From NCBI RefSeq assembly GCF_900105755.1, contig NZ_FNTQ01000001.1, positions 1,054,001 through 1,118,000 on the forward strand: DNA of 64,000 nt, in the 5' to 3' direction. Source of the stretch: Streptomyces sp. Ag109_O5-10 (GTDB lineage Bacteria; Actinomycetota; Actinomycetes; Streptomycetales; Streptomycetaceae). The first letter of the stretch is position 1, and each line of letters starts with the position of its first letter. Shown here piece after piece: positions 20,012 through 36,730 of this stretch. The translations under genes and the position numbers were made by a program. Below the pieces are notes generated by a model, which was not told the DNA's origin, did not search any database, and saw nothing but the letters and a program-made list of their open reading frames with translations.

Positions 20012-20687
20012 TCCCCCTTTAGGGTCAGCTCGTGCGCCAGGATGGCCCGCCACTCGGTGAGGGGCAGCAAACCCTCCTGCTTCTCTGACAGGACGATCCG
20101 CCACACACGCTCGGACACGCTCTGGACCGCGTTCGCGTCGATCCTCTTCCTGGCCTCGTCCTCGGAGACGTCACCGAAGATGCGTTGCCGGTGTTGGACG
20201 ACAGCGGACTCGATCCTTTGCGGCTCGTGTAGTTGCGACCAACTGTTCACATTGAAGGGGGCCCAGGTGATCCACATGTAGTGATCACCGAAGAGGTACT
20301 TCTCCTGGTGCGCGACGTAGCACTTGGCGAGGAACTCGACGAAGTGAGTGCCCTGGTCCGCCGGCCCCTGATAGTGCTTGACCTCCGCGCAGAACTGGTC
20401 GCCATGGTACGGGGCGCCCCGCATCGACCCGCCCAGGTCGAAGGAGAAGGTCTGTCCGCCCTCCGGCCAGGCGAGTGTCAGTTTCCTCGCCCAGGCGTCC
20501 GAGTCCGTGTTCGCGAAGGCCCCACAAATCCGCATCGTGCCCTCGAGGTAGAGCTTGGCTCTCTTCGCTCCCGAGATTCCCTTTAAGACACCGTTTCCTT
20601 TGGCCGTAGTCACGCCAGGGTGCGGGTTCATGGTGGCAGTACGGTGGGGCCGCCCTGATCCACTATGTCTGCGAGGTTGGTCCGATC

Positions 20688-21224
20688 ATGCACGGAGACT
20701 TGGACAGCACGTCGGCGCGGGCGCTGGCATGCTCGACTGGACTGCGGATCGGAGGGGCCCTGTACATCCTCGCTGAGCGGGCTGGACTCGCTGACCCGTA
20801 CTACCTTGCCGATGCAGGTCTACGGGCCGGTCTGCGGGGCGCACCAGGTCGGACGCTCGATCAGGATGTACTGCAACATGCTCGGTCCGGCCTGGATGCT
20901 GCTCAGAGCAGCTACTCGGTGGACCGTGCCGCACCATTCACCCAGGCCGGCTTCATGCTGATGGGGCGAATCTTGCAGGCGCTTGAGCAACCTGATGAGC
21001 ATTACGGTTTGCCAGAGATCCACTCCCTTGCTCGAAGCACCGCAGCCCTGTGGCCGGGTTCGATCGGCCTTGAGATTGACCCTGGCGGCAGCCTGATGTC
21101 CTACGAACGGGCCTGTCAGATCGACGCTCAGCGAGAGTTGGAGGCTGGCGGCCTTGATAGGCTTCGTCAGGTTCTGGGCGCGCAGGAGCTGGGCTATCGC
21201 CGTCTGGCCAGAGCCCTCGCCTAG
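20688..21224 (+). CDS. Passenger protein inside the IS5-type element, copy 2
   Basis: The same 178-residue protein as in copy 1 (for example LRIGGALYILAERAGLADPY and the HSLARSTAALWPGSIGLEID region), on the strand opposite the transposase and converging on its stop. Its function is unknown. Exact preservation in both copies indicates that it belongs to the unit that moves. Confidence 0.65.
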   Translation: MHGDLDSTSARALACSTGLRIGGALYILAERAGLADPYYLADAGLRAGLRGAPGRTLDQDVLQHARSGLDAAQSSYSVDRAAPFTQAGFMLMGRILQALEQPDEHYGLPEIHSLARSTAALWPGSIGLEIDPGGSLMSYERACQIDAQRELEAGGLDRLRQVLGAQELGYRRLARALA

Positions 21225-22041
21225 GCGGCCGGCGAGCGTGCCAGCCTGCGGTGGCTGATCAAGGCAGCGGCGATGCCTACGAAGGCCAGGAAGTGCTCGG
21301 CCTTGCGCTCGTAGCGACGGTGTAGGCGGCGGCATCCGGCCAGCCAGGACACCGTGCGCTCGACCACCCAGCGGTGTCGACCGAGCCTGTGTGAGGACTC
21401 AATCCCTTTGCGGGCGATGCGGTGACGAATGCCCCGCTGTCGGAGCCATTTGCGCAGGTGGTCGTAGTCGTATCCCTTGTCGGCATGCAGTTTCGCCGGC
21501 CGTCGTCGACGTGGTCCGCGCCGGGAGCGAATCGGCGGGATGCCACACACGAGCGGCTTGAGTCCAAGGCTGTCGTGGGTGTTGGCGGCGGAGATGCCCA
21601 GCGACAGGGGCAGGCCGTTGCGGTCGGTGATCAGGTGGATTTTCGATCCGCTCTTGCCACGGTCGGTCGGATTCGGTCCAGTCAGTAGCCCCCTTTTGAC
21701 GCCCTCAGGCTGACGGAGTCGATCGCGCACCGCGACCAGTCCAGGTCGCCTCGGGCACCGAGCTCGTCGAGGAGGACGCGATGCAGTCGGGCCCAGACGC
21801 GCCCCCGACTCCATTGGGCAAAGCGACGGTAGACGGTAGGCCATGCAGGGCCGAAGACCGGCGGCAGTTGCCGCCACGTACAGCCTGAATTGGCTACGAA
21901 GATGATGGCGGCCAGCGTTTCGCGGTCACCCGCCCGACGCCGTCCACCGCCCTGCGGACGCTTGATCTCCATGGGTGGCACCACTCGCCGGAACAGCACC
22001 CACAAGTCATCCGGAACCAGCCGCTCAACCAGGTCTGTCAC
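21221..22041 (-). CDS. IS5-family transposase of copy 2, two frames
   Basis: The N-terminal frame is 22041-21682 and the C-terminal frame ends at 21221, joined by a -1 shift at the A4G5 run near 21690-21698. Motifs are as in copy 1: AIDSVSLRA, TGPNPTDRGKSG, LHADKGYDYD and RHRWVVERTVSWL. Conservation of the two-frame layout in both copies supports programmed frameshifting. Confidence 0.88.
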
Positions 22042-22326
22042 AAATCACCCAACGACCCAGCAGCACCAAAGGAAACGGTGTCTAAGTGGGCGTCCTCTCC
22101 TACCACGGTGAGAGTCTAAGCGCCGCGGAGGGGCGGCGGCTGATGGCCGCACTAGCGAGCGGTCCCTGATTCAGAGCAAGGGAGTGCTGTGCAGACAACC
22201 TGGCGGTGCCGCGAAGGAGCGGAGCGGACCACAGGATCCAGGCAGGCAGGGCGACAGCCTCTGTTCAGGCGGCAAATGACCGCACCAGAGCGCCGCACGT
22301 GTGTTGTGCTCCTTCTCCCTGAGTCG

Positions 22327-22779
22327 TCAGGCGACGATCACACAGACGAGAAGGAGGGATAGCCCATACAGGGCTATCGCGAGGTGCAGCCCTACCCACA
22401 GGCGGTGAAGCCGAATGCGGTGCAGCCGGGGAAACTCGCGGTAGTGCGCCGCGCGTGCCCGGGCGAGCCCCTCATCGGACCCCAGCACGCCCCGGGCCGC
22501 CAGGTCTTGGGTCAACGCCCGCGCCTGGGCGAGGTGGTAGGAGGCCCGCTCGTAGTACTTGGCCACCGCCACAGCCCCGTAGACTCCAGTCGTCGCGACG
22601 AAGAGGCACAAAGGCAGGACGTTCAGCGTGAACTTCTGCTGGACGATCAGACCGCTCAGGGCTGCCGTGACGATGAGCAGGAGGTTCGTCAATGTGGAGC
22701 GCTGGGTCTCACACTGCCGCAGTTGCTCGCGGTGCTCCTTCCAATAGGCGCGTATCGCCTCTTCCGATGTCTCGGCCAT
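22327..22779 (-). CDS. Small membrane protein, divergent from the DUF4062 gene
   Basis: A 150-residue protein with about three transmembrane segments: LTNLLLIVTAALSGLIVQ and VLPLCLFVATTGVYGAVAV, a charged helical loop, then LWVGLHLAIALYGLSLLLVC at the end. The N-terminus is a charged helix (EEAIRAYWKEHREQLRQCET). The layout resembles small membrane proteins of the RipA/SLATT type found beside sensors in defence islands, but that is a resemblance only. It is divergent from the DUF4062 gene at 22858, with 78 bp between starts, so both probably share a control region. ATG 22779 was chosen over TTG 22782. Confidence 0.62.
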   Translation of the reverse strand: MAETSEEAIRAYWKEHREQLRQCETQRSTLTNLLLIVTAALSGLIVQQKFTLNVLPLCLFVATTGVYGAVAVAKYYERASYHLAQARALTQDLAARGVLGSDEGLARARAAHYREFPRLHRIRLHRLWVGLHLAIALYGLSLLLVCVIVA

Positions 22780-22857
22780 CAAACCCCCAGTTGAATGCTG
22801 GCACCAGCCACCCGGTTCACCTCACAGCAGAACCCTCAGCAGTGGAGACACCGTAAC

Positions 22858-23982
22858 GTGAGGATCTTCATCAGCAGTGCCCGCAAGGGTCTGGAGGAGG
22901 AGCGCGACGCCCTTGACGGGCTGGTCCGCGCTCTCGGTCACACCCCGGTCCGGTTCGAGGACTTCTCAGCTCAGACCACGCCGAGCCGGGAAGCCTGCCT
23001 GAAAGCTCTGTCGACCGCCGACGCGTGCCTCTTCCTCCTAGGCCCGAACTACGGCCACGTGTTCCCCGAGACAGGGCAGTCAGCCACCCATGACGAGTGG
23101 GTAGCAGCCCAGCAAGCAGGTCTGCCCCGCCTCGTCTATCGCAAGCTGAACGTGACCTTCGAGCCCAGTCAGCACGAGTTCGTACGCGTAGTGGAGGCGT
23201 ACGCCACCGGAGTATTCCGCGACAGCTTCCGCACGGCCGCAGACCTGCTCCCTAAGGTCGCCGGGAAGATCCGGGAGCTGGAGTCGGGCCCGTCCCCCCT
23301 GGCCTTCGCCAAGCTGACCCAGCCACCCGCCCTGCACTGGACCCTCGAGGAGGGTACAGGCGGCCTGCAGACCGCTGGCGTGACCACCCTTCTGGAACTG
23401 CACGTCCTACCACTGGACTCTGCTGGCTACTCGGCCAGGGAACTGGAGGCGCTCGGCCACTCGCTGCCGGGCCGTGTGCGCCTCACCGGTATGGTCGAGG
23501 ACGATGTCCCCCTCAGCTCTTCCCGACCGCAGGACCATATGGCCGTCTCCGTCCCGGCCAGCCGCCCCCGTTCGTGGGACACGCCCCGTCCGGGCCAGCT
23601 CGTAGAGGTCCGCCTGTACAAGACGGGCCAGCTCTCCACCCGGGCCCTGCTTCCCCAGGACAGTATGGGGCCGATCCTCGATCCCAATGCCCTGCCCAAG
23701 CAGATCGCCGAACTGCTCAAGTTCACTGGCTCGTTGGACATCATCAGGCAGGACCGCATCGTGGTGGCTGCCGGCGTGTCGGAGCCCGCTATGACCAGCA
23801 TCGATACCTTCGACCCACGTCAGTCACGGCGCACAGCCAGTCTCGCTGGCTTCGGCCGGCCATTCGCCCTGCGTACCGAACCCGACGAGTCCGTCACCCT
23901 GGCGGCCCTGCAGGCCGGAGCCGATGAAGTCGCCGAACATCTCGCGCGGGCACTGATCGCGCGCCACCCCTCCGCTGCCTGA
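22858..23982 (+). CDS. DUF4062-domain protein
   Basis: A 374-residue protein whose first 110 residues fit DUF4062, a TIR-like/Rossmann fold found at the start of many signalling and NTPase proteins. The opening VRIFISSARKGLEEERDALD, PVRFEDFSAQTTPSREACLK and ADACLFLLGPNYGHVFPETG segments are characteristic, and THDEWVAAQQAGLPRLVY follows. The C-terminal 250 residues (GVTTLLELHVLPLDSAGYSA and later) are unrecognised and lack a visible NTPase motif. The GTG start at 22858 begins right at the conserved beta strand and has a GGAGA site upstream. Pairing with a small membrane protein suggests a sensor/effector pair, which is inference. Confidence 0.75.
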   Translation: MRIFISSARKGLEEERDALDGLVRALGHTPVRFEDFSAQTTPSREACLKALSTADACLFLLGPNYGHVFPETGQSATHDEWVAAQQAGLPRLVYRKLNVTFEPSQHEFVRVVEAYATGVFRDSFRTAADLLPKVAGKIRELESGPSPLAFAKLTQPPALHWTLEEGTGGLQTAGVTTLLELHVLPLDSAGYSARELEALGHSLPGRVRLTGMVEDDVPLSSSRPQDHMAVSVPASRPRSWDTPRPGQLVEVRLYKTGQLSTRALLPQDSMGPILDPNALPKQIAELLKFTGSLDIIRQDRIVVAAGVSEPAMTSIDTFDPRQSRRTASLAGFGRPFALRTEPDESVTLAALQAGADEVAEHLARALIARHPSAA

Positions 23983-24370
23983 GGCCGTTTCGAGCAAGCG
24001 GGCACGGCCGCCGCCTGCTCTCGTTTGACGCTTGAAAAGGTCCGAAGCGGCTTGGCGATCGACGCCCTCTTCTGCCAGCGACTGAAGCGGACGGTCGACC
24101 TACTGAGCACACCACCCTGACCGGACCGTCCAGACGAGTTCCACCGCGTGAATCATGTACCGGCCGGAAGAGTGCAGGTCGAACGCCAGTGTCACCTCGT
24201 GTCTCCGGGGCCGCACGGTCCAATCGCGCCCCAACCTCGACACTGGTGCCCGAGTCGAAGGCGCGGACCGGCCTCCGTACACGTCGCGCCTCTGTTGGCA
24301 GGGCGTGATCAGACGCGATAGCCTGCCGGGCTGCCTTGTTGCGGAAGGCGGCAGAAGGGAGGGGAGCCCC
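23983..24370. other. Intergenic stretch before the methylase-like operon
   Basis: No gene is supported. A minus-strand fragment near 24110-24240 (RPRRHEVTLAFDLHSSGRYM) looks weakly coding but has no start context. The promoter of the downstream operon should lie in the right half; no convincing -35/-10 pair was identified. Confidence 0.4.
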
Positions 24371-25678
24371 ATGCCGAATCACAGGTCCGACATCGCCGAG
24401 GTTCGTGCCGCGATGCGTGCCGTCGGCTACACGATTCTGCAGGTCGAGCCGCGGCTTGAAAACTTGTCGAACTTTCGGCCGGATGTATTGGCGTGGGCGT
24501 CGAATGCCGACGGGGAACTCGTGCCGTGGGCCGTTGTCGAGTGCAAGACCAAGAAGCTCCGGCAGCCCGAGCTCGTCCTTCCCTCCCTGGCGGGCAGCCG
24601 GGACCTGCTGGGTACGCTCGAGCACTACGCGGTGATCAATGGGCAGTGGTTCAAGGCCGACCGTGGTGTCCGGTCCTTGCAGCCGGTCGACGGCCCAACT
24701 CCGCCCGAGCACGGCTCGCAAGGCTTGGTCACCGACAGGTCGCTGGCTACATCCCTCCTGGTGCAACGTCTGTGGTTCGAGGCGGACCGTCTCCGCAACT
24801 CCGGGGTCTCAGCCGACCGGTACTTTCCTTCCGGGGACGTCCTGACGTCTTCCCGAAATGGGAGGCCGGGTATCGAACTGCCCGACGGTGGGTTCGTGCC
24901 GGTTCGGGCAGACGTACTCTGGCGCGCGAAGCGGGACGCGTTGACCGAGTTCGCCTCTCGTGGCAGGCACCGAGAGTTCAGCTCACCCCGAGTGGTTGCC
25001 TCCGCCGTTTCGGCGCTGGTTGAGAAGCATCTGGCTGGCACCGTCTTGGATCCGTTCTGCGGAACCGGATCGTTCCTCTGGACGGCCTTGGACCGTGCTG
25101 CGGAGCAAGGCGTCGCGGCGGAGTTCATCGGCTACGAGTTCGACGCACAGCTCGCCGAACTCGCGGCAGGGATCGGTCGGGACGCGCCGAGGCACGTGGT
25201 GATCGAGAAGGGCGACTCCTTCCAGAGGGACCTCGCGGATGCCGACGTCGTTGTCACGGCGCCGCCTGTCGGTCTCTCCCTGGCCGACCGCCACCTTCTC
25301 CTGGACGGATCGACCACGTCCGACGGCAATGTCGCAGCGCTGGACAAGTGTGTGCGGGCGCTGAAGCCCGGAGGACGCGCTGTCCTGCATATCGCTCACT
25401 CGTTCACCTTCGCGGACCGGTACGCGGCGTACAGGAGGTTCCTGGCCGAGAACTTCCACGTAGCCGCTCTTATCGGTCTTCCGGCAGGAGCGATCACAGG
25501 CACCGGTGTCCGTTCCGTTCTCGTCGTCATCGACCGCACTGAGCCCGCGGAGACGCTGGTCGCCCATCTCGGTGAGGACTGGGAGACGCAACTCGGCCCG
25601 GAAGGTCCCGGGCTGAATGCCGTCCTGGAGTTCGTCGACGCAGAAGACGACCGGCCACGTACCGCAGGACGGTCATGA
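24371..25678 (+). CDS. N6-methylase-like protein with N-terminal nuclease-like domain
   Basis: A 435-residue protein. The first 110 residues resemble the type I restriction R-subunit nuclease domain: NFRPDVLAWAS, then WAVVECKTKKLRQPE, giving D...ExK. The second part is an HsdM-like methyltransferase: GTVLDPFCGTGSFLWTA (SAM motif I, near residue 224), FIGYEFDAQLAELA, LKPGGRAVLHIAHSF, and a C-terminal ALIGLPAGAITGTGVRSVLV typical of HsdM. The catalytic motif IV position reads TAPPVG instead of NPPY/NPPF, losing the asparagine and the aromatic residue, so methylation is doubtful. ATG 24371 follows GGGAGGGGAG. Its stop overlaps the next start (ATGA), showing an operon. Confidence 0.82.
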   Translation: MPNHRSDIAEVRAAMRAVGYTILQVEPRLENLSNFRPDVLAWASNADGELVPWAVVECKTKKLRQPELVLPSLAGSRDLLGTLEHYAVINGQWFKADRGVRSLQPVDGPTPPEHGSQGLVTDRSLATSLLVQRLWFEADRLRNSGVSADRYFPSGDVLTSSRNGRPGIELPDGGFVPVRADVLWRAKRDALTEFASRGRHREFSSPRVVASAVSALVEKHLAGTVLDPFCGTGSFLWTALDRAAEQGVAAEFIGYEFDAQLAELAAGIGRDAPRHVVIEKGDSFQRDLADADVVVTAPPVGLSLADRHLLLDGSTTSDGNVAALDKCVRALKPGGRAVLHIAHSFTFADRYAAYRRFLAENFHVAALIGLPAGAITGTGVRSVLVVIDRTEPAETLVAHLGEDWETQLGPEGPGLNAVLEFVDAEDDRPRTAGRS

Positions 25679-26844
25679 GCAGCTTCTTGACAGTTGATCT
25701 GCGGGGCGAGGCCGACTGGGATCCAGGACGCCTGGTTGGTTCCACCTTCGCTTGGCCGACAGCGGCGCCGGTGGTCCCATTGCGTGCACTCGTTACCAGT
25801 GTCCGACCGGGGAGTGTCGCGACCGCTGGTTCCCCAGTCATCACGCCCGCCGCCCTGGTGGCGCGGACCGGGGCGATTCGGCGGCGGAGCACCAAGTACC
25901 AGGGCAAGGCATTCACCGTCGGAACGCGCGGCCTTCGGCGTGGTGATGTCCTGGTGCCGCCCTCGCCGTCCGGGCCGGCCGTTCTTGTCGACGACCGGCT
26001 GAACGGTGCGCTCCTCTCATCCCGGTTCACAGCCCTCCGGCCTCTCGATCCGGTGTTTTCCCGGTGGATCTGGGCCGTGTTGAACTCGCGGGCGGGACAG
26101 GCCCGTCGGGCGTCGCTGGCCACAGGTACCACTATGGCGTCCGTGAAGACGCCGGATCTGCTGGAGATGGGCGTGCCCCTGCCGCCCCTTGTGGAGGTCC
26201 AGCGGCTCGACAGAGTGCTGGCTTCGATCGAGGCGGGAACGCATCGCGAGGAGGAGCCGTCGGAGTCGACGTGGTGGGTCACGGCTGACCTTCGGCTCCG
26301 GGACGACTGGGGGATCATGCTCGCCACTCCTCGTCCCGAGCTCCTGGAGGACGGCGAACCGCTCGGTTCCTTCGTACGGGAGATGAAGCCGTCCCGCTCA
26401 ACCCGCGGCTTCGACGTGCCGACGGAACTGCCGGGCACGCTTCCGGTCGTGGACGTGAGTGTCCTCGGGGGCCGTCCGACCCGGCGATGGGCCGCGCCGC
26501 AGTCCACCACCGTCACCCTCATCGCCCCGGGCGACCTCCTCATCGCCCGCGTGGGCGAGTACTCGTACGCCACCGTCGCGCAACGCCCGGCCGTCGCGGA
26601 TCCGGGCGTCTTCGTCCTCCGGCTGCATGACCAGTCACAAGGACCTGCGCTCGCGCACTTCCTGAACGGGCGCGAGGGGCAGACCAGGAGGCGCATGTTC
26701 TTGCGGGGCGTGACGGTTCCGTCCTTGCGGAGGACGGATATCGAGAGATTCCCGATCCCAGCAGAAGCCCTCGAGTTCGAAGGAAACGTCGAGCCGGACG
26801 TGGGGTTGGCGGACCAATTGGAGCACGTCTTGTGGACCGCATGA
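25675..26844 (+). CDS. Type I specificity-subunit-like (HsdS-like) protein
   Basis: A 389-residue protein overlapping the methylase-like gene by 4 bp. It has two target-recognition-like halves. The first runs from VVPLRALVTSVRPGSVA to SVKTPDLLEMGVPLPPLVEV, the usual end of a recognition domain. The second runs from EPLGSFVREMKPSRS to GVTVPSLRRTDIERFPIPAE. The repeated T-x-x-L/I-x-x-x-x-P pattern at each end is characteristic of HsdS. The usual long coiled coils joining the halves are short. It would direct the complex to DNA. With the upstream motif degenerate, it may supply recognition without modification. Confidence 0.78.
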   Translation: MSSFLTVDLRGEADWDPGRLVGSTFAWPTAAPVVPLRALVTSVRPGSVATAGSPVITPAALVARTGAIRRRSTKYQGKAFTVGTRGLRRGDVLVPPSPSGPAVLVDDRLNGALLSSRFTALRPLDPVFSRWIWAVLNSRAGQARRASLATGTTMASVKTPDLLEMGVPLPPLVEVQRLDRVLASIEAGTHREEEPSESTWWVTADLRLRDDWGIMLATPRPELLEDGEPLGSFVREMKPSRSTRGFDVPTELPGTLPVVDVSVLGGRPTRRWAAPQSTTVTLIAPGDLLIARVGEYSYATVAQRPAVADPGVFVLRLHDQSQGPALAHFLNGREGQTRRRMFLRGVTVPSLRRTDIERFPIPAEALEFEGNVEPDVGLADQLEHVLWTA

Positions 26845-27782
26845 GCTGCACGCTTTCGCCCCTCGTCTACGCCGAGCTGTACCGGTTGCTTGCCGCGGAC
26901 AAGCAGCGGTACGACGACATCGAAGAGCGGCTGAGCGAGATCGGGTACGCCCCCGCGTGGCTGAGTACCGCTGCCGACGCCTACGACGAGTACTGGGCGA
27001 TGCAGCTGGAACTGGCCGGTGCGGAAGGCGTCGGGAACATCTCGGTCGGGAGTGCCGAGCATGCCCTCCTGGCTACCTGGGTACTGGCCGGCCTTCGCAA
27101 CACAGGCGACGACAACACGCTGAGTTCGGCGCTCAGGGCGAACGTCCATAGGCGTGCGGTCAGCGAGATCCCAGATCTAAGAATGCCTCTGCCATCGGTC
27201 CTCAACCCGGTCATATACGGGTGGACTCTCGGCGCAGTCGTCAGCCTGAGTTCGACTGACGTCCCAGTCGAACCCGTCGCTCCGGCGAGCATGCCTGACG
27301 ACGATAACCTCGTCGCGGCGTACCTCGGGCTCGTCAACCACGTCCTTGCGCTGGAGGGCATGGCCGAGCCGTGGCCCGAGATGATGCAGACGTCCACTTA
27401 CTGGCGCGGTTACGGGATCGCAGAGGCACTGAAACCGGGGGCCGGGGATGGCGGCCGAGCACTCCTGGAACTGCTAGCGGAATCGCGGCCGTTGCTCTCG
27501 CAGCCAGTCTTCTCCCAGCTCAACAACCACTTCAGCCGCTTCGGGGCGCGCCGGAACGCCCTGTCACACGTCACGGACGATGCGCGTCGTCCAGAACGGT
27601 TCGTGAAAGTCGTCGAGGACACGCATGGCTGGGAGCACCTGCGGGTGACCCTCCGTGGCCTCACGCAGTTCGTCTGCCAGGAGGTCTCTCGCCTGCTGTA
27701 CGAGGAAAACCCACCACCGGCTCTTCGGAACGATCCGTGGAGCTACCTCGTGCGGGAGATGCCTACGGAGTGGTGGGCTTAG
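26841..27782 (+). CDS. HEPN-like hypothetical protein, third gene of the operon
   Basis: A 313-residue, mostly helical protein that starts at ATG 26841, overlapping the HsdS-like stop (ATGA). Near the C-terminus RFGARRNALSHVTDDARR contains an R-N-x3-H motif inside a helix, the signature of HEPN RNases. The SQLNNHFSRFGARRNALSH stretch fits the second core helix. The N-terminal half has AYDEYWAMQLELAGAEGVGN and is unrecognised. If active, it would cleave RNA, a common abortive-infection output. Membership of the operon links it to the methylase-like and HsdS-like products. The motif is clear; assignment to the fold is moderately sure. Confidence 0.62.
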   Translation: MSCTLSPLVYAELYRLLAADKQRYDDIEERLSEIGYAPAWLSTAADAYDEYWAMQLELAGAEGVGNISVGSAEHALLATWVLAGLRNTGDDNTLSSALRANVHRRAVSEIPDLRMPLPSVLNPVIYGWTLGAVVSLSSTDVPVEPVAPASMPDDDNLVAAYLGLVNHVLALEGMAEPWPEMMQTSTYWRGYGIAEALKPGAGDGGRALLELLAESRPLLSQPVFSQLNNHFSRFGARRNALSHVTDDARRPERFVKVVEDTHGWEHLRVTLRGLTQFVCQEVSRLLYEENPPPALRNDPWSYLVREMPTEWWA

Positions 27783-28028
27783 AGGCGTGCGACGAGAGTA
27801 CAGAAACTGAATGCCCACGGCGTCAGAGAGCTAGCTCGTCCGAAGGGCAACAGGCTGTCCGCCGGGCTCGCAACCATCGCCCGTCAATCCCTGTTCAACA
27901 GCACCATCTCCGATTCAAGGGCTGGGCGCCGACACACCAGATCGCAAGCCGTCGCCGGGCTGCACACGCGGCTCTTGGCGGATGTGATCGCCTCCGGCGC
28001 CCCATCTAGGAGCACCACGGCTGGCTGC

Positions 28029-31000
28029 CTATCTATCCTCCTCGAGTTGGTACACCCGGCTGTGCGCCCCTCTGACGCCCGTAACCGTCACACTGCTGCT
28101 CGGACGGCAAGTCAGCTGCTGGAGCGGCTGCGGGATGATGCGTACAGAGACGGGGCCGGCCCCGGACTCCAGTCCGGAGACGACGACGAGGAAGAAGTCG
28201 TCACTCTCCACTGCTCGCTGGAATTCCGCGGGCGTCAGCAGCACCGTGTCCGGCTCGGTGTCTTTGTATGCCTTTAGTTCGTAGAACCTCGACAGTGCGT
28301 CCACCGCGTCGGCGCCGAGGCCACGCTGGGCTCGTAGGTCGCGCAGCCAGTCATCGTCGGCGGCGAGTGCCTTGCGCACCACGTCCAGAGCCACCTTTTC
28401 CTGCTCCAGGCTCGTGTAAGCGCGCGGTGGCGTGTGCTGTTGGGGGATCGCTGATCCGGCGCGGGGCTGCGGCAGGCCGGACGTTCCCGATGTGTACCCG
28501 CTCGGCCGTGCGGTGGGCGCGTCCGCGGCCGAGGACCTCGGTGGCGTGATGATGCCGCTCGGGTCGACGAGCCGGAGTCTGCCGGGGTCGACGAGCTTGC
28601 GCGGTGGAGCGGCGGGAGCCGCAGGCGGGGCTGACGGCCCCGTCGCGGGCGGCGGTCCGCCGGGGACAAGCGGGAGGATCACCGCCGTGCGTGAGGTACC
28701 GGCTGCCGTGCCGGCCTGCGCCTTGGTTGCGGTACGCCGTTGGTCCACCTCGCTTCCGAGTTCCCGGAGCCGTCGTTCGCGTTCGGCCTCCGCCGCTTCC
28801 CGGTCGCGCCGCACCTGATCGTCGGCAAGGCTCAGTTGTACGGCCGTACGGCCCTTCTCGGCCTGGTCACACGCTGCTCCCCAGGCGAGGGCCACCTCGC
28901 GGCGGCTGCCCGGAAACCGGGCGGCGATCGACCGGCCCACCCCGGATGTGCGTGTCAGAGCGGCAGTGTCACGCACGTACAACGTGCCCGAGGACCAGTC
29001 GATCCCGGCGTCCACGGGCACGTGCACCGTCTCGCCCGTGTCCGGAAGATCGAGGCAGCAGGCCAGGTGAGGGGCGATGCATACAGTCAGGTCAGCCAGC
29101 TGGTCCCACGAGCAGTCCAGGGACTGCGCAACGCTCGCGGCGTTGCGCTGCAGGTCCTCGCGGAGGTGGGTGACGGCTGACCGGACCAGCGCTGTGGCGT
29201 CCGGGTCCGCCAGGGCCGGGCCAGGGCTGTACACGGTGACATGCTCTGCGGCGAGCTCGCTCACGCGCAGGGCTCCGATCAACGGCCGGAACTGCTCCAA
29301 TTCGGCTCCCGGGCACCACACCGCACGTTCCCGGCCCAGCGCCTCGGCTACAACCGGGTCTTCGACGGCGTACACGGGCCGCTTGCTTCGCCAGCCCTGG
29401 CTCGTCCAAAGAGGGAGGCGTCCCAGGCGCTTGGCCGTCAACGCGCCGGGATGAGTACGGCCCAGAGCGGCGAGCATCTTCAAGGTCTCCAGGACGATGG
29501 ACTGGGTCGTCCCGTCCGGATCGTCCCGACCCTGCTTCCGGTCCTGCTGTGCCAGCTCCTTGATCACGGCCGTGGCGTCGTCCACAGTCGGCAGGCGCAC
29601 TGCGAGCCGCTGCCAGAACTCCTCGCTGCCTGGAAACGTGGGAGCGAACGCACGGAGCGGACCGAAGAGCGGCGCTCCGCGCAGGCACTGGCTCGGCCGG
29701 CGCCAGCCGGAGTCCGTGAGGACGAGGCCGCTCCCATCGCCGAATGCCCGAAGGACCGAGCCCAGGGACATCTCCCCCGAGGCTCTCTCGCCACGGCCAA
29801 AGACGCGCTCTGCCAGGGCTTGGTAGAGGATCAGCGCCGCGGGCACATCCCTGTCGCCGCCCTCTTCCTCCCGTCGGCGCAGGCGCCGCAGACATTCCAC
29901 GAGGTCCTCCGTGCGGGCCTCTGCAGAAATGCCCAGGGCGCGCAGCACATCACTGCGTCTGCCGACCAGTTGCTGGATCTCGGGATGGAGGAATCGCTCG
30001 TCGTCCGCCCCGTACACCGCGACCGTGCCGGTGGTCCGCATGCGGAGTCGAGCCGGGGCAGACAGTGCGCCGTTACCGGCGTCCAGCCATGGTGTGTCGC
30101 GCAACTGCCAGAGCCAGAAAGCTGCGGTTCTGCCTCGATTCTGCCATGCGTAGTAGTCGTAGACGGCATCCACCTCGTCGTGGTCGGAGAAGCGGCTCCA
30201 TGCCCGCCCGAGGACGTGAAACAGCGCTGCCGCCCTGCGCCTGCGGAGCTGCGGGTCCTGCTCCGCCGCTATGCCAGAGGCGACGGCACGTAGGTCGGGG
30301 CTTTCGTAGTCGTCGAGCGTGAAGGTCGCTTCCAGAACGCGCAGGGCATCAGTGCGTGCTCGAGGTCCCGAAATGACTTCCGCCGGCAGCCCCTTCGGGC
30401 TCTGCGTGAAGCGTTCCCGCGCCCCCGGGTGCCTGCGCAACCTGGGCGCGGTCTCCGCGCCCAGGAGCCTCAGGAACTTACGGGCGCCCATCCCGGCGCC
30501 GCCGCGCTGCAGGACCTCGGCGTACCGAGGCCGCAGCCACACCAGCCCGGCCGTGCGACCGGCGGCGAAGGCGAAGCTCTCCTCGCGTTCCGAACTGTCC
30601 AGTCGGGCGGGTAGGTACGCCCGGGCGGGAGCGACGTCGATGTCTTCACGCTTTCCGGCGCGGTCGTAGCGATGCCCCTGCAGCCAGATTGCGTGGCCCA
30701 CGTCGCGCCCCAAGGTCTCACGCTCGTGGTCCGGCACGCGTGCGAATCCGTCGCGCAGTTCGATGAGCTGGTCATCTGTCAGCCGCAGTACGTTCGGGCC
30801 GCTGCTCCCCGCCGCGCCGATGGCCGCGAGGCGCCGGATCACGGCCACCGCGTCCGCGTCGGTCAGCAGCGCCTCCCGCGTACGGAGCCATGTCCTCACC
30901 GACCGCGCCTCGTCGGTGTCGGCGAGGAATGCCGGATGGATTTCCCGGGAGAATCCGAGACTGGCGCCGAGGCCCCGCGGGGCGTCGGTGAACACCGCTG

Positions 31001-32612
31001 GCTCCGCGGGCCGGGGCACACGGTGACGGCTCCCTGAGCTGTCCACGAGCCAGCGGCTCGACAGCAAGGAGGAGTAGATATTCGAGGCAAGTCCCACCGC
31101 GGCGAGGCGGATGTTCGCCTGCGGCGACCGGGTTTCGTCGTCGAGGAGGCGTAGCGCGTCGTAAAGGTCCACCGTCGCGGGAACCGCACTGTCGTGGTTC
31201 TCCCAGTCCGCCAGCACCTCGCGCCATCGACCGTCCTCGTCCCGCGCCACCTTGGGCAGCACGGCGGTCCGCTCGGCGACGCGGGAGATCTCTTCTTCGG
31301 TGACCACGCCCACCAGCGTCTCGTCCTCCACCGCGAGATCATCCAGGCCGAGCGGCCCGTAGCCCGGGACGTCCAGGACGAGACCGTGGGACACGCCCGC
31401 CCTGGCACGGTCGAGGAGTAGTCGCTCCAGCGCGGCGACCGGGTCGCGGGAGTCGCGCATGTCGTCGGGGAGCGGCACGGCGCGCCAGGCCCGTGCCGGA
31501 TCCCACCGGAACTGCCACAGGGCGGCGGCCGTCCACAGGTCACCCACCAGTTCATTCAGTGCGCGGTTCCACGGGGTGTCGTCGAGCGCCTGACGGCTGG
31601 CGATCGGATCGAACTGGGCGCTGATACAGAGGGACAGAGCGGTGTCCGCGACCGGAAGACCGGCGTAGATCCGCCCGGCGTCATCGGGTCCGAGAGGAAG
31701 AGCCACAGCGATTGCGGTGGTGGACCCCACCGCCTTGTGAGACCGGGTGATCCCGGAGGGGCTGGGAACGGTCGTACGGCAGATCAGCCACCGGGACCCA
31801 TCGCCGGCGCGTGCCTCGCCGGTCTCCACGTCGGCGCTCTGACCGCCCACCACGGCCTTGAACGGCTCGCCGGTCTCACGGTCGAGCGCCAGCCGGTGCC
31901 GGACACGACCTTGTTCGTCCAGGTGCGTGACGCTGCCGACACTGCCGAGGAAAAGCAGCGCGCTGTCCCCCCACTCGGCAAGCCACGCGTCCACCTCGCC
32001 CGCGCCGAGCACGCCCGGCTCCAGAGGAACCCGTAGAACCGTCCAGGCGTCGCCCGCGAACCAGTCAGGCAACGGGAACGGCCTGGCCACGGCGATGTCA
32101 GGATCGCCGACCCGGAACCGGTAATGCCCGCAGTGAACCTCCAGATGCGGGGAGAGGGACTGTAGGGTCATCAGGCCGATCCCGAACCTACCGGTGGATT
32201 CCGCCTGCTCTGCCTTGCTCGTCAGCCAGGGCATCGCCAGGGCCAGAACGTCCGGCAACCGTACGGGACTGCCGTTGTGGGCGACGATGAGTTCCTGTTC
32301 CCTCGTCAGAATGCGTACGTCCGTGGCGCCGAGGTCCTCGGCGTTCTGCACGATCTCCGAGAGTCCCTGGAGACGGTCGCTCGACAGATTCCCCGCGTGG
32401 TCTCGGGTACGTCTCAGCGCGTGCCGTACTTGACCGTCCAGTCGCGCGAACCGGCTGCCGAGTCGCTCGACCGCCGCCTCAGTCGCCGCCTCACCCTCCG
32501 GCTCCGGTACGACGGCTCCTTCTGGGATGCCCTCCATGGAGAAGAGCGCATCGGCGGACGCAATTCCCCGCTCCACTGCATCTGTTCGACGCACCGCATC
32601 CCCCGTGGTCAT
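28029..32612 (-). CDS. Giant sacsin-like GHKL ATPase with C-terminal DUF3883-like domain
   Basis: A 1527-residue protein convergent with the methylase-like operon (247 bp between ends). Near residue 80 the N-terminal HSP90-like ATPase has GLSEIVQNAEDLGATDVRIL (the N-box with E and N), IVAHNGSPV (a D/H-x-G variant) and STGRFGIGLMTLQSLSPH (G2 box). About 1200 residues of unassigned, beta/alpha regions follow. The last 150 residues look like a DUF3883/PD-(D/E)XK domain: QEKVALDVVRKALAADDDWL, RFYELKAYKD with the E-x-K pair, and LLTPAEFQRAVESDDFFLVV. A proline-rich linker precedes it. ATG 32612 has GGGGGAC upstream. Similar architectures occur in defence islands; here it may power or sense for the neighbouring operon. 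Confidence 0.82.
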   Translation of the reverse strand: MTTGDAVRRTDAVERGIASADALFSMEGIPEGAVVPEPEGEAATEAAVERLGSRFARLDGQVRHALRRTRDHAGNLSSDRLQGLSEIVQNAEDLGATDVRILTREQELIVAHNGSPVRLPDVLALAMPWLTSKAEQAESTGRFGIGLMTLQSLSPHLEVHCGHYRFRVGDPDIAVARPFPLPDWFAGDAWTVLRVPLEPGVLGAGEVDAWLAEWGDSALLFLGSVGSVTHLDEQGRVRHRLALDRETGEPFKAVVGGQSADVETGEARAGDGSRWLICRTTVPSPSGITRSHKAVGSTTAIAVALPLGPDDAGRIYAGLPVADTALSLCISAQFDPIASRQALDDTPWNRALNELVGDLWTAAALWQFRWDPARAWRAVPLPDDMRDSRDPVAALERLLLDRARAGVSHGLVLDVPGYGPLGLDDLAVEDETLVGVVTEEEISRVAERTAVLPKVARDEDGRWREVLADWENHDSAVPATVDLYDALRLLDDETRSPQANIRLAAVGLASNIYSSLLSSRWLVDSSGSRHRVPRPAEPAVFTDAPRGLGASLGFSREIHPAFLADTDEARSVRTWLRTREALLTDADAVAVIRRLAAIGAAGSSGPNVLRLTDDQLIELRDGFARVPDHERETLGRDVGHAIWLQGHRYDRAGKREDIDVAPARAYLPARLDSSEREESFAFAAGRTAGLVWLRPRYAEVLQRGGAGMGARKFLRLLGAETAPRLRRHPGARERFTQSPKGLPAEVISGPRARTDALRVLEATFTLDDYESPDLRAVASGIAAEQDPQLRRRRAAALFHVLGRAWSRFSDHDEVDAVYDYYAWQNRGRTAAFWLWQLRDTPWLDAGNGALSAPARLRMRTTGTVAVYGADDERFLHPEIQQLVGRRSDVLRALGISAEARTEDLVECLRRLRRREEEGGDRDVPAALILYQALAERVFGRGERASGEMSLGSVLRAFGDGSGLVLTDSGWRRPSQCLRGAPLFGPLRAFAPTFPGSEEFWQRLAVRLPTVDDATAVIKELAQQDRKQGRDDPDGTTQSIVLETLKMLAALGRTHPGALTAKRLGRLPLWTSQGWRSKRPVYAVEDPVVAEALGRERAVWCPGAELEQFRPLIGALRVSELAAEHVTVYSPGPALADPDATALVRSAVTHLREDLQRNAASVAQSLDCSWDQLADLTVCIAPHLACCLDLPDTGETVHVPVDAGIDWSSGTLYVRDTAALTRTSGVGRSIAARFPGSRREVALAWGAACDQAEKGRTAVQLSLADDQVRRDREAAEAERERRLRELGSEVDQRRTATKAQAGTAAGTSRTAVILPLVPGGPPPATGPSAPPAAPAAPPRKLVDPGRLRLVDPSGIITPPRSSAADAPTARPSGYTSGTSGLPQPRAGSAIPQQHTPPRAYTSLEQEKVALDVVRKALAADDDWLRDLRAQRGLGADAVDALSRFYELKAYKDTEPDTVLLTPAEFQRAVESDDFFLVVVSGLESGAGPVSVRIIPQPLQQLTCRPSSSVTVTGVRGAHSRVYQLEEDR

Positions 32613-33353
32613 CCCTGTCCCCCGCATACCTCGACACTCCCCACGACACAGGGTAACGAAGCCAGCGCAATCAGCACACGTCAACCCGAGACCTGTCGCC
32701 GTATAGCCCGAGCCCAAAAACAGCCCCGACCCGCTGCTCAACGGGTTGAGCCCGACAAGCCGATCGACCCGCGCTACCTGATCCAGGACGACCACTCCAC
32801 GCTCCGTCAGAAACAGTGATCGGCAAGGACAACGACTTCAGCTACGGCATCATGTCCCCGAGGAAGCCCACCGGCCGGTTTGGCCTCCGCCGGGGGCACA
32901 GGTGCGAGATGCGCGGCTCGGATCATGACCGGCGGGCGGGGGGATCGCCGGAACGCTCAGCCCTCGATGTGATAGCGGCTCTGAGACACGACGGCTTGGC
33001 GGATCTTGGTGGTGAAGTCGGCCGTACGGGCGATCCGGTCGACGCCGCCGGCCTTGTTACGACGCAGGACGCTCTTGAAGTTCTGCTCCAGCGTTCCTGT
33101 CATTCGGAACATCAAGTCGTCGCTGAGATGGTCAAGATCGATGTTGAGGAGGTCCCGCGGCGACGGCTGCCGTAGCCGTGTGAGGGTGTAGGCGGACATG
33201 GCCGCCAGCGGGTACAGCCAGTTCTCGAGCGAATCCCCCAGCAAGGGACGGTCTTCGGCGTACCGAGTGAGGAACATGCGCAGCCTGGTGTGCACGTCGA
33301 GACACAGCCGGTAGATGTCCAGATCGTGCCGCGGCGAGAAGATCTGGGCCTAG

Positions 33354-34795
33354 TAGGGCTTGGTCAGGTTCGTATTGGGGTGGGTATGTCGTGGTGGCAG
33401 GTGGGGCAGGCGCCGGTCCAGAGGGCGAGGAGTGTTTGCAGCTCGCGGACGGTCTGGTAGAGGCTCAGTCCTGCGCCGTGTCTTTTGGGTCTCGTGCCAG
33501 CCGTTGGAGTGTGCAGAAGGCGTGGGCGGCGGAGACGAGGGTGACGTGGTGGTGCCAGCCGTTCCAGGTGCGGCCCTCGAAGTGGGCCAGTCCCAGGGCT
33601 TGTTTCATCTCGCGGTAGTCGTGCTCGATGCGCCAGCGGAGCTTGGCCAGCCGCACCAGGGTGGCCAAAGGCATGCCGGAGGGCAGGCTGGACAGCCAGA
33701 ACTGCACCGGTTCGCTCTCGTCGGCTGGCCATTCGGCAAGCAGCCAGCGCTCGGGCAGTTCCGGTTCGTCGGCCGGCTTGCGGATGCCGCGTCCGGCGGG
33801 ACGGATGCGCAGGGCGACGAACCGCGAGTACATGCGCCTGAAGCCGCTTCGGCTGTTGCCCGGCCGGGATCCCTCTCGCCAGGACACCGGCCGAGCGGCC
33901 GTCCGGCCGGCCGCGATGACCAGGTCCTTCACGCTCTGCGGCGGGTCGGGGTACTGCATCTTCGACGGCCGGCCGGTGCCCGCGTAGGCGGGCTGGACGG
34001 GCCGGGCATCGGCAGGGTGAGCGGTGTGGCGGCCGGAGATGCCCACCGCATAGGGCAGATTGCGTTCTTCCAGGCCGCTGCGGAAGGCGGCGGCGTCGCC
34101 GTATCCGGCGTCCGCGACGACGAGGGGAACGTCGATGCCCCACGACCGTGCTTCGTCGATCATGTCCAGGGCCAGCTGCCACTTCTCCACGTGTCCCGTC
34201 TGGGCGGGGATGCCGCAGCGGGTGCGGCGGGCGACCTTGGCCGCATCTGCCTCGGGCGAGGCCGGGTCCCAGCCGGCCGGCATGAACAGCCGCCAGTCGA
34301 TCGCGGCCGAGGCACGGTCGGTGGCCAGGTGCAGCGACACTCCCACCTGGCAGTTGGTGACCTTGCCCGCGGTTCCGGTGTACTGCCGGGACACGCACGC
34401 CGAGGCGTCCCCGTCCTTGAGGAACCCGGTGTCGTCGACGATCAGCGCTTCCGGCCGGATCGCGTCCTGCATCTTCCAGGCCAGGCGGGCCTGCACGTGC
34501 GCCGGATTCCACGGGCTGGTCGTCACGAAGTGGGCCAGTGCCTGCCGGTTGCCGTCCTCGCCGAGGCGGGCCGCCATCGGCTCCACCGACTTGCGCCGAC
34601 CGTTCAGCAACAGTCCCCGCACATAAACCTGTCCCCATCGCCGCTGGTCAGCACGGAAGAAGCCGTCGAACAACTCCGCCGTGAACGCCTCCAGGGCCTC
34701 CCGGACCCCGACCATCTCCTCAGGTGTCACACCACCTCAACGACACCCACCGACCAACGGACACGCCATCCACAAATGAACCTGACCAAGCCCTA
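33354..34795 (-). mobile_element. IS701-family insertion sequence
   Basis: The 1442-bp element has inverted ends TAGGGCTTGGTCAGG and CCTGACCAAGCCCTA. It is flanked by the 4-bp repeat CTAG (33350-33353 and 34796-34799), the duplication expected for IS701. It lies inside the AIPR pseudogene. Confidence 0.9.
33465..34730 (-). CDS. IS701-family transposase
   Basis: A 421-residue DDE transposase, full length. Segments include ALIVDDTGFLKDGDASACVS with the first aspartate, PLVVADAGYGDAAAFRSGLE with the second, and AKLRWRIEHDYREMKQALGL with the glutamate region. It begins with EEMVGVREALEAFTAELFDG. The frame is intact, so the element may be active. Confidence 0.93.
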   Translation of the reverse strand: MTPEEMVGVREALEAFTAELFDGFFRADQRRWGQVYVRGLLLNGRRKSVEPMAARLGEDGNRQALAHFVTTSPWNPAHVQARLAWKMQDAIRPEALIVDDTGFLKDGDASACVSRQYTGTAGKVTNCQVGVSLHLATDRASAAIDWRLFMPAGWDPASPEADAAKVARRTRCGIPAQTGHVEKWQLALDMIDEARSWGIDVPLVVADAGYGDAAAFRSGLEERNLPYAVGISGRHTAHPADARPVQPAYAGTGRPSKMQYPDPPQSVKDLVIAAGRTAARPVSWREGSRPGNSRSGFRRMYSRFVALRIRPAGRGIRKPADEPELPERWLLAEWPADESEPVQFWLSSLPSGMPLATLVRLAKLRWRIEHDYREMKQALGLAHFEGRTWNGWHHHVTLVSAAHAFCTLQRLARDPKDTAQD

Positions 34796-36142
34796 CTAGT
34801 GCTGGTCGTCGAGCAGCAGCGCGTCGGAGTGCCGCAGCGCGGTGTGCGGTTCGCGCAGTATGAAGGCGGTGAACTCGCGGGCGAGCCGGGCCATGCTGAC
34901 GACCCGGTCCAGTGGGAACCCGAGGTTGCGGTAGTAGCTGGCCCGGCGCTCGTAGTAGTAGCCGCCCGCGTGGCCGAGGCTCTCCTCGATGTCCTTCTGG
35001 ATGGACTCTGTGGCGCGCAATGCGCCGGCGGGCAGTTGGGTCTGGCTGTTGGTCGCCCGGATGATGCGGTCGCGAGCCGTGCCGTTCTCAGGAGCGACCA
35101 CGATCTTCACCAGGAGGGACCGATCGCGGTGCTGGCCGCCGTTCTGGAATTAGCTGTAGATCTCGTGGCTGGTCTGTAGCCCGTTGACGATCTGAGGCTC
35201 CCTGACCACGATCTTCTTGCCGGCGATCTGGGCGGCGTCCGCGACGACGGTGACGCCGTTGTTAAACCACCAGAAGTCCTCGCCGGTACCGGACCTCAGG
35301 GTCTCACCGATGGCGTTGTTGACGGCGGTGGATCCCGCGTAGTCGCGCACGTTTGACTCGAACAACTCCAGGCGCAACGCCTGGTTGTCGGACGTGATGA
35401 AGCGGTAGTACTCATCCAGCCGCGCCAGACATACGTATCCCTCGCCGAGCGACGTGCTCATCGGCGTTTCGGTGAACACCAGTTGTGCGACGGCTTTTGC
35501 TCCACGGGCAGTCCGCTCGCGCAAGTCAGCAGCGTTGAGGTACTCCAAGTCAGCACGCGTATCGGACGTGATCTTCGCAAGTTCCCGCCTGAGCCGGTCA
35601 CCCTTGGCCTTTACGTTGGGGTGCGGCGTCTCTGCCGACTTGTTCGCATAGATCACCTTGATGTGAACCTGCGGGAACGAAGACGCCAGTTCCTCGAGGA
35701 TGTACAGGAAGCGGCGCGTACGCTCAAGCAGTTTGGCATTGGTGTGCGGAACCAGATCCTCCTCCTCCCGGCCCATATCCAGCAGAGCCGGCAGATGGAA
35801 GTGAAGCTTCTCGATCACAGACTCCTGGTAACCCGACGAGTTCTTCGCCTGCAGGATGACCAGCTCGATCTTGCCAGCACGTGGCAGAAGGAACTGATGC
35901 GCGTCGGCGGTGATGTAGCGCTCGTCCACGAACGTCCAGATACCGTCAATTCCGCAGTCGTGCGCACCGTCGACGATGCCGTCCGTGATCTCGTCGTTGT
36001 CCAGGTCCCAGTCCTGCAGCGCCTTGTCCGCGGCGAAGAACGTGAAGAAGTCGTCCCGGCTCTTGTCCGGCGCGAGCTTACGATGCTGGTCCTCCAAGAT
36101 GCGCTCCAGCAGCCGCTGATCATTGCTCTGCACCGACACCAC

Positions 36143-36730
36143 GCGAGACCCCCAATCTCCGCACCGGAACAAAGAGATGTTGGCAGGCTTACGCGACCAT
36201 GAACAGCCCGCAGACGAGAAGCCCGTGCGCCCCTTGGTGGGGGCAGGCATCGCCTCAGACCCTCCAAGGGCATTCGAATTTGCAGACGCGAAGGCTACGA
36301 CCTGTTGGTCGCAAGGGCCCCGGGCCGCATCTACCGCAGGCGTATGTCATCACTACGCCCTCGCGTCAAGTGCTCGCTGGAGGAGAACCCAGGGGGTGCG
36401 GTGCCACCGCCGGAACTGCAGCACACCCGCTCGGAAGCACCCTCCGACCGCGTCTGCAGGGGCTTGCCGTCGAACGCCTCTCTCACAGGCGTTGTCACAC
36501 GTCTGTCACCAACTACGCCGACTCCCCCGGACTGCGATGCCTGACCTGCGACTACGCACCCGCCCTGGACTGACGTGGACGCCCGAAGACGGTCTTTACA
36601 ACCTGTGCCATGTAGTACCGCACACGAAGCCACGAGACAGGAAAGATCCGGACCATAGGCGGACCAACCGAGCCGCAACGGCCACCTCCTACACCATCAC
36701 TGCAGTTCAGGGGCTCGCAAGCGCTATACC
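36143..36730. other. Non-coding end of the integrative element
   Basis: No gene is supported between the AIPR start and the right attachment copy. The stretch has several related short motifs, such as GTTGTCACACGTCTGTCACC near 36490, that could be integrase arm sites, but this is only suggestive. The control region of the AIPR gene lies at its left edge. Confidence 0.4.

What the first reader, a model, noticed from the sequence alone, without database searches (positions are those of the whole stretch)
24371..32612. Candidate undescribed defence system: nuclease/methylase-like, HsdS-like, HEPN-like operon plus a giant GHKL-DUF3883 protein
Three genes overlap by ATGA junctions. The first fuses a D...ExK nuclease-like domain to an HsdM-like fold, the second is HsdS-like, and the third has an RNALSH HEPN motif. 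A 1527-residue GHKL ATPase with a nuclease-like tail converges on them. DNA recognition, an RNase-like output and a large ATPase, without a classical HsdR, do not match type I restriction, BREX or DISARM as I know them.
Basis: partly seen in the sequence, partly recalled or inferred. Interest (0 to 1): 0.85.

Follow-up and report, generated by a model that had tools for sequence, protein, structure and literature searches.

The report
Three-gene restriction-like defence with dead methylase
Next to an already named giant defence gene, this Streptomyces carries a rare three-gene unit that looks like a DNA-recognising restriction enzyme whose methyl-adding half has lost its key residue, tied to a probable RNA-cutting toxin; no description of it was found.

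Summary
The genes are real and where stated, but they are not one system. The 1527-aa GHKL protein is a full-length match to PADLOC's TmtA (Tiamat; 1883.5 bits). Relatives of it lack the other three genes in 7 of 7 further Streptomyces loci read, and two divergent lineages of the other three lack it.

The first three genes are a conserved unit, intact and in the same order in 5 loci of three lineages. Gene 1 fuses an HsdR-like PD-(D/E)xK domain to an HsdM-like methyltransferase, gene 2 is HsdS-like, gene 3 keeps RNALSH. This resembles type IIB enzymes (BsaXI, BcgI) with one striking difference: the catalytic Asn of motif IV (NPPF/Y) is Ala in all six copies that include it, while 28 of 31 other methyltransferases looked at keep Asn. 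The same change in TspGWI abolished methylation and left reduced cleavage (PMC2700111, passages).

Best reading: a DNA-recognition complex that can no longer methylate, tied to a HEPN-type RNase as an abortive arm, rather like PrrC with its type I enzyme. HEPN assignment and mechanism are inferred.

The parts
24371..25678 (+). Gene 1 (435 aa): HsdR-like PD-(D/E)xK domain fused to an HsdM-like, motif-IV-degenerate N6-methyltransferase
24371..24730 (+). PD-(D/E)xK domain, residues 1-120; D38 (24482-24484), E57 (24539-24541), K59 (24545-24547), invariant in 5 of 5 intact members
24938..25555 (+). HsdM-like methyltransferase domain, residues 190-395
   Evidence: PF02384 E 1.2e-13; PDB M subunits E 7.4e-10 and weaker
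25049..25078 (+). Motif I DPFCGTGSFL (SAM binding), retained
25256..25273 (+). Motif IV TAPPVG: Ala297 in place of the catalytic Asn of NPPF/Y; Ala in all six copies that include it
25675..26844 (+). Gene 2 (389 aa): HsdS-like specificity subunit; ATGA overlap with gene 1
26832..27782 (+). Gene 3 (316 aa): helical protein with R-x4-H motif, probable HEPN RNase; start GTG 26832 or ATG 26841
27552..27569 (+). RNALSH motif of gene 3 (residues 241-246)
28029..32612 (-). TmtA (Tiamat-type) GHKL/sacsin ATPase, 1527 aa; a separate neighbour, not part of the three-gene unit
22795..23982 (+). DUF4062 protein (395 aa), upstream neighbour found only in the window-like Streptomyces copies
22327..22782 (-). 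Small hydrophobic protein (151 aa), divergent partner of the DUF4062 gene

Best explanation
Two neighbouring systems lie here. One is a stand-alone Tiamat-type TmtA. The other is a compact three-gene unit. Gene 1 (nuclease + degenerate methyltransferase) and gene 2 (HsdS-like) most likely form a complex of two fused chains and one S subunit, as in BcgI/BsaXI, that binds a sequence chosen by gene 2 and uses SAM, if at all, as a cofactor. Because the catalytic Asn of motif IV is Ala, the complex cannot methylate DNA; its output is cutting by the HsdR-like PD-(D/E)xK domain and/or triggering of gene 3, a HEPN-type RNase that shuts down translation in the infected cell (abortive infection). Shown: gene content, co-conservation, intact nuclease residues, loss of the motif IV Asn, independence from TmtA. 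Inferred: the complex, HEPN activity, the coupling, phage defence, and how the host's own DNA escapes (target absent from the genome, or recognition of a modified base).
For: Three-gene unit: in order and intact in 5 loci of 3 lineages: window, L002 and L055 (94-99% identical to the window), L056 (67-69%), L004 Arthrobacter (44-45% to the window for genes 1 and 3, about 40% for gene 2). dN/dS window-L056 is 0.26-0.27 for all three genes, so all are under purifying selection. D38, E57, K59, D227 and G231 of motif I, Ala297 and R241/N242/H246 are invariant in 5 of 5. Motif IV controls: 28 of 31 other methyltransferases keep Asn, 2 have His, 1 could not be located. TspGWI, with the same HsdR-like nuclease + HsdM-like layout: N473A in NPPY gave no methylation and reduced but present cleavage (PMC2700111, passages). 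In M.TaqI the Asn side chain contacts the target adenine (PMC3874165, passage). Structural look: residues 1-121 on HsdR 3h1t, 121-435 on type I M subunits. BcgI-like enzymes are 2RM:1S (PMC3874165, passage). HEPN genes are linked to R-M systems in at least 16 clades, with PrrC held in check by its type I enzyme (PMC3710099, passages). The 5 loci without intact genes 1-2 also lack an intact gene 3, as expected if gene 3 is harmful alone.
Against: No HEPN family or fold match for gene 3: the motif is short and the model failed. Degenerate motif IV is not unique to this unit: 2 of 31 controls have HPPF, and one of the four solved structures aligned (lmo1582, 2f8l) has DLPV there. The whole-length match to BsaXI has an rmsd of 14-15 A, so it holds by domains only. 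Only three lineages are known; the three closest intact copies are not independent. In the decayed loci one deletion may explain the loss of several genes at once, and gene 3 of S. silvae, though it has a stop at codon 13, could restart at a TTG just after it. L056 lies among ordinary-looking genes, not an obvious defence island (by eye), so context does not prove defence. No relative was found in plasmids, phages or viral contigs by the searches made.
Confidence: 0.55

Rival explanations
1. Conventional type IIB-like restriction-modification pair whose methyltransferase still works with an unusual motif IV, plus an accessory HEPN toxin.
For: Motif I (DPFCGTGSFL) is intact. Type IIB enzymes combine a fused nuclease-methyltransferase with a separate S subunit (PMC3874165, passages). 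Some other methyltransferases depart from NPPF/Y (HPPF in L039, L040; NPPH in L046; DLPV in lmo1582).
Against: The Asn side chain contacts the target adenine in M.TaqI, and N473A abolished methylation in TspGWI. The aromatic after the two prolines is also lost in two of three lineages (V, L, F).
Confidence: 0.13
2. PrrC-like guard: the gene 1-2 complex mainly holds gene 3 in check, and phage anti-restriction proteins that hit the complex release it. DNA cleavage is secondary.
For: PrrC is held inactive by its type I enzyme and freed by the T4 Stp peptide (PMC3710099, passages). None of the 5 loci lacking intact genes 1-2 keeps an intact gene 3.
Against: Conservation of D, E and K across about 45% identity points to selection for cutting. 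Gene 3 shows no ABC ATPase domain (no family matches).
Confidence: 0.2
3. All four genes are one system.
For: The arrangement is kept in the window, L002 and L055.
Against: Those three are one close group. Seven of seven other TmtA loci read lack the trio. In S. silvae and Arthrobacter SW1, which have the trio, a TmtA query found nothing in the genome; L056 has none in 19.9 kb; L057 keeps a TmtA without stops (98.6% identical) after genes 1-2 were lost.
Confidence: 0.04
4. A decaying relic of a type I/IIB system without function.
For: Five of 10 loci with any trio sequence are broken.
Against: The five intact copies have no internal stops; dN/dS is 0.26-0.27 between window and L056; motifs are invariant.
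Confidence: 0.08

Closest known systems
Tiamat (PADLOC TmtA, PDLC03968)
   Same: The giant protein matches it over residues 4-1526, 1883.5 bits, with a sacsin-type ATP-binding domain (NF047352, 66.1 bits against a cut-off of 50).
   Different: Nothing shown to differ. PMC10482375 (passage) names Tiamat among systems of unknown mechanism enriched in Actinobacteria.
Type IIB restriction-modification enzymes BsaXI / BcgI
   Same: Nuclease and methyltransferase fused in one chain plus a separate S subunit (PMC3874165, passages); the gene 1 model aligns over 1-425 with BsaXI, though with an rmsd of 14-15 A.
   Different: Gene 1 is 435 aa; the BsaXI chains are about 915. Motif IV lost its Asn. A HEPN-like third gene follows.
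TspGWI-type fused enzymes
   Same: N-terminal HsdR-like PD-(D/E)XK plus HsdM-like module without the ATP-dependent translocase (PMC2700111, passages).
   Different: Natural TspGWI has NPPY and methylates; this family carries Ala naturally and has a separate S subunit and a third gene.
PrrC with its type I enzyme PrrI, and other HEPN genes in R-M operons
   Same: A probable HEPN RNase encoded in an operon with DNA-recognising restriction parts (PMC3710099, passages).
   Different: No ABC ATPase domain detected, no HsdR translocase, no working methyltransferase expected; gene 3 matches no family in the libraries searched.
MADS (Mad2 methyltransferase, Mad5 S subunit)
   Same: Best PADLOC hit of gene 1 is mad2 (9.5e-26); gene 2 hits mad5 (1.4e-11).
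   Different: Far below the NCBIfam cut-offs (26.2 of 720; 28.3 of 400 bits); no other mad gene in the listed hits of the ten proteins scanned. The mad2 model matches all 246 of 246 genomes searched, so it is not diagnostic.

Membership tests
Tiamat (TmtA) | Full-length match to a TmtA model | tested here: met
   PDLC03968, residues 4-1526 on 4-1483 of 1486, 1883.5 bits
Tiamat (TmtA) | Anti-phage activity | not testable with these tools
   no experiment possible
Type I restriction-modification | HsdR with ATP-dependent translocase in the locus | tested here: not met
   none of ten proteins scanned in 18557-36250 is called HsdR; gene 1 carries only an HsdR-like nuclease domain
Type I restriction-modification | HsdS subunit | tested here: met
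Type IIB (BcgI/BsaXI-like) | Fused nuclease-methyltransferase chain plus separate S subunit | tested here: met
   by sequence and a moderate model only
Type IIB (BcgI/BsaXI-like) | Intact N6-methyltransferase motif IV (NPPF/Y) | tested here: not met
   TAPPV/L/F in all six copies that include it
Type IIB (BcgI/BsaXI-like) | Cleavage on both sides of the site | not testable with these tools
   needs purified enzyme
HEPN superfamily (gene 3) | R-x4-6-H motif in a helical protein | tested here: met
   R241NALSH246 in 5 of 5; secondary structure from a low-confidence model is all helix
HEPN superfamily (gene 3) | Match to a known HEPN family model | tested here: not met
   no hit in Pfam, NCBIfam or PADLOC
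HEPN superfamily (gene 3) | HEPN fold | tested here: inconclusive
   model pLDDT 35.8
PrrC/RloC | ABC ATPase domain joined to the HEPN domain | tested here: not met
   no family match in gene 3
MADS | mad2 and mad5 above curated cut-offs together with the other mad genes | tested here: not met
   26.2 of 720 bits, 28.3 of 400 bits; no other mad hit listed for the ten proteins (for genes 1 and 2 only the best 25 hits were listed)
BREX / DISARM | PglZ, BrxC or DrmA/B-type components in the locus | tested here: not met
   no such hit listed for the ten proteins of 18557-36250 scanned; gene 1 has only a trivial BREX-6 methyltransferase hit, 9.6 of 900 bits

The most novel reading that the evidence does not exclude
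A restriction system without self-modification: a type I/IIB-like enzyme whose methyltransferase half has been turned into a pure DNA reader (perhaps of methylated or otherwise modified adenine, which a pocket without the Asn could accept), using HsdS for sequence choice and firing both a DNA nuclease and a HEPN RNase. That would be a modification-reading (type IV-like) or modification-blind defence built from type I parts.
Probability: 0.25. Interest if true: 0.8.

Novelty: new variant of a known kind. Interest (0 to 1): 0.5.

Why it matters
Restriction enzymes of types I to III normally tell self from non-self by methylating their own sites. Here the recognition parts (HsdS, SAM-binding motif I) and the nuclease residues are kept across three lineages while the residue needed for methyl transfer is gone. 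If the unit protects against phages, it must spare host DNA in another way, and it links DNA recognition to a probable RNA-cutting arm. Both points can be tested with a three-gene, 3.4-kb construct. For annotation, the result separates this unit from the Tiamat gene beside it.

Tried and rejected
Four-gene system: rejected on co-occurrence. DUF3883 tail: PF13020 found nothing in the genome and the protein gave no such Pfam hit; only an impression by eye. MADS membership: weak hits far below cut-offs, and the mad2 model is unspecific. Search for the unit on mobile DNA: no match in plasmids (genes 1 and 3), phages (gene 3 only) or viral contigs (genes 3, 1, 2, two short peptide patterns each). 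Fold of gene 3: model useless, so no fold search was made with it. Terminator or promoter between gene 3 and TmtA: none found by consensus scan, which says little in a high-GC actinomycete. Specificity domains of gene 2: 68-70% identical between window and L056 in the approximate TRD stretches (borders by eye), against 60% and 73% in the other two stretches, so no sign of the usual diversification; no control HsdS pairs were measured. Literature: searches for HEPN with HsdS/HsdM or R-M, for inactive methyltransferase domains, for type IIB S subunits and for PrrC listed no paper I could recognise as describing this combination; I saw listings and passages, read no paper whole, and the library lacks most subscription journals. 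The origin of the name Tiamat (a 2022 discovery screen) is recalled, not read.

Control counting: the methyltransferase loci used as controls were L007-L015 (9) and L034-L040, L042, L044-L046, L048 (12), which gave 19 Asn and 2 His, and L060-L069 (10), which gave 9 Asn and 1 not located (L066). L006, L041, L043 and L047 are the trio itself and were left out. Four PF02384 rows had no locus and were not read (one of them the trio of S. albogriseolus). For L037, L039, L040, L046 and L048 the motif was picked by eye from a listing. The controls came from three searches of different reach and are not a random sample.
Full report
What is there. The window lies in a 9.46-Mb genome whose closest relatives for these genes, at 93-97% protein identity, are Streptomyces albogriseolus and S. 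silvae. Three genes on the + strand (24371-25678, 25675-26844, 26832-27782) face a 1527-codon gene on the - strand (28029-32612), with 247 nt between the ends.

The giant gene is known. It matches PADLOC's TmtA model PDLC03968 from end to end with 1883.5 bits and carries a sacsin-type ATP-binding domain (66.1 bits against a cut-off of 50). DUF3883 was not detected. Tiamat is named among systems of unknown mechanism enriched in Actinobacteria (PMC10482375, passage).

It is separate from the other three. A 401-residue part of TmtA is found in 8 of 150 genomes of the genus, the own one included. About 20 kb was read at each of the seven others, and none holds genes 1-3. These copies are 36-54% identical, one (L032) 90-92%; L025 is interrupted and L032 frameshifted, L026 and L027 have no stops, the other three were not checked. 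Conversely, TmtA is found in 1 of 4 genomes of another collection that carry the trio or a remnant: S. albogriseolus yes; S. silvae, Arthrobacter sp. SW1 and S. caelestis no. It is also absent from the 19.9 kb around the divergent trio L056, while L057 keeps a TmtA without stops (98.6% identical) beside a mere fragment of gene 3.

The three genes form a unit. Ten loci with any part of it were found: the window, L002-L005 and L055-L059. Five are intact, all with the order 1-2-3: window, L002, L055 (94-99% identical to the window), L056 (67-69%) and L004 from Arthrobacter (44-45% for genes 1 and 3, about 40% for gene 2). Five are broken: L003 (frameshift in gene 1 near residue 340, stop at codon 13 of gene 3), L005, L057, L058 and L059 (fragments). 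In none of the five is gene 3 intact, although in L003 it could restart just after the stop. The unit is rare: gene 3 was found in 1 of 150 and, with an alignment, 6 of 392 genomes of the genus (three of these six are fragments), 1 of 396 in the phylum, the own one, and 1 of 245 in the Arthrobacter's family, its own. dN/dS between window and L056 is 0.26-0.27 for each gene.

Gene 1. The N-terminal 120 residues have the order of a PD-(D/E)xK nuclease, with D38, E57 and K59 invariant, and superpose on an HsdR fragment (3h1t, Z 10.5, rmsd 3.2 A over 111 residues) in a second look at Foldseek's matches. The rest resembles type I M subunits; the whole length aligns with BsaXI only with an rmsd of 14-15 A, that is, domain by domain. 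The model is moderate (mean pLDDT 51.8), so this supports rather than proves the fold. Motif I is intact. Motif IV is TAPPVG in the window, L002, L003 and L055, TAPPLH in L056 and TAPPFG in L004: the Asn is Ala in all six copies that include it. Of 31 other methyltransferases looked at, 28 keep Asn, 2 have His and 1 could not be located. Of the four solved structures whose alignments were shown, three have NPPF and one, lmo1582, has DLPV, so loss of the motif is not unique to this unit. One actinobacterial methyltransferase with an N-terminal D...ExK stretch, L068, has NPPF, so such a layout need not go with a lost Asn. In TspGWI, which has the same nuclease-HsdM layout, N473A abolished methylation and left reduced cleavage (PMC2700111, passages).

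Genes 2 and 3. Gene 2 is HsdS-like and shows no faster change in its approximate recognition stretches than elsewhere. Gene 3 has RNALSH inside an invariant RRNALSH stretch but no family match and no usable model. HEPN RNases are often linked to R-M operons, and PrrC is silenced by its type I enzyme until the phage disables that enzyme (PMC3710099, passages). The HEPN reading is therefore likely but unproven.

How it most likely works. Genes 1 and 2 make a DNA-recognition complex that can bind and cut but not methylate; gene 3 is an RNase arm that stops growth when the complex meets its target or is attacked. How host DNA is spared is open: the target may be absent, or the altered pocket may read a modified adenine. 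The last idea is the boldest that the evidence leaves open.

Compared with what is known. Architecture: type IIB (BsaXI/BcgI), membership failed on motif IV. Logic: PrrC-type coupling, membership failed on the ABC ATPase. Type I, MADS, BREX and DISARM: defining parts not met among the ten proteins scanned. Overall a new variant of a known kind, next to an already known gene.

Noticed in passing
window 32957-36250 (-): An AbiU-like (AIPR) gene lies in three pieces (PADLOC AbiU positions 1-313, 326-422, 450-535), with a transposase-like ORF (33465-34730, judged by eye; PADLOC gave no hit) between the last two.
   Followed up: partly
window 22327-23982: A divergent pair, small hydrophobic protein and DUF4062 protein, travels with the unit only in the window-like Streptomyces copies (window, L002, L003, L055), not in L056 or L004.
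   Followed up: partly
window 18557-20631 (-): Two overlapping ORFs without a family match in three libraries (one weak hit, E 0.31) are 94-97% conserved in L055, where they sit about 180 bp from the small hydrophobic gene. In the window about 1.7 kb lies between, holding transposase-like ORFs (21221-22041, by eye).
   Followed up: no
L039 and L040 (PF02384 hits in the own genome and S. silvae): Two related methyltransferases carry HPPF instead of NPPF at motif IV: possibly another naturally inactive group.
   Followed up: no
PADLOC model PDLC04134 (mad2): Matches 246 of 246 actinobacterial genomes at E 1e-15 or better, and all 14 control genomes, so mad2 hits alone do not show MADS.
   Followed up: yes
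L059 9236-9532: A deletion scar joins a piece of gene 1 (motif I region) to the tail of gene 3: a relic of a further lineage, about 36-45% identical.
   Followed up: partly
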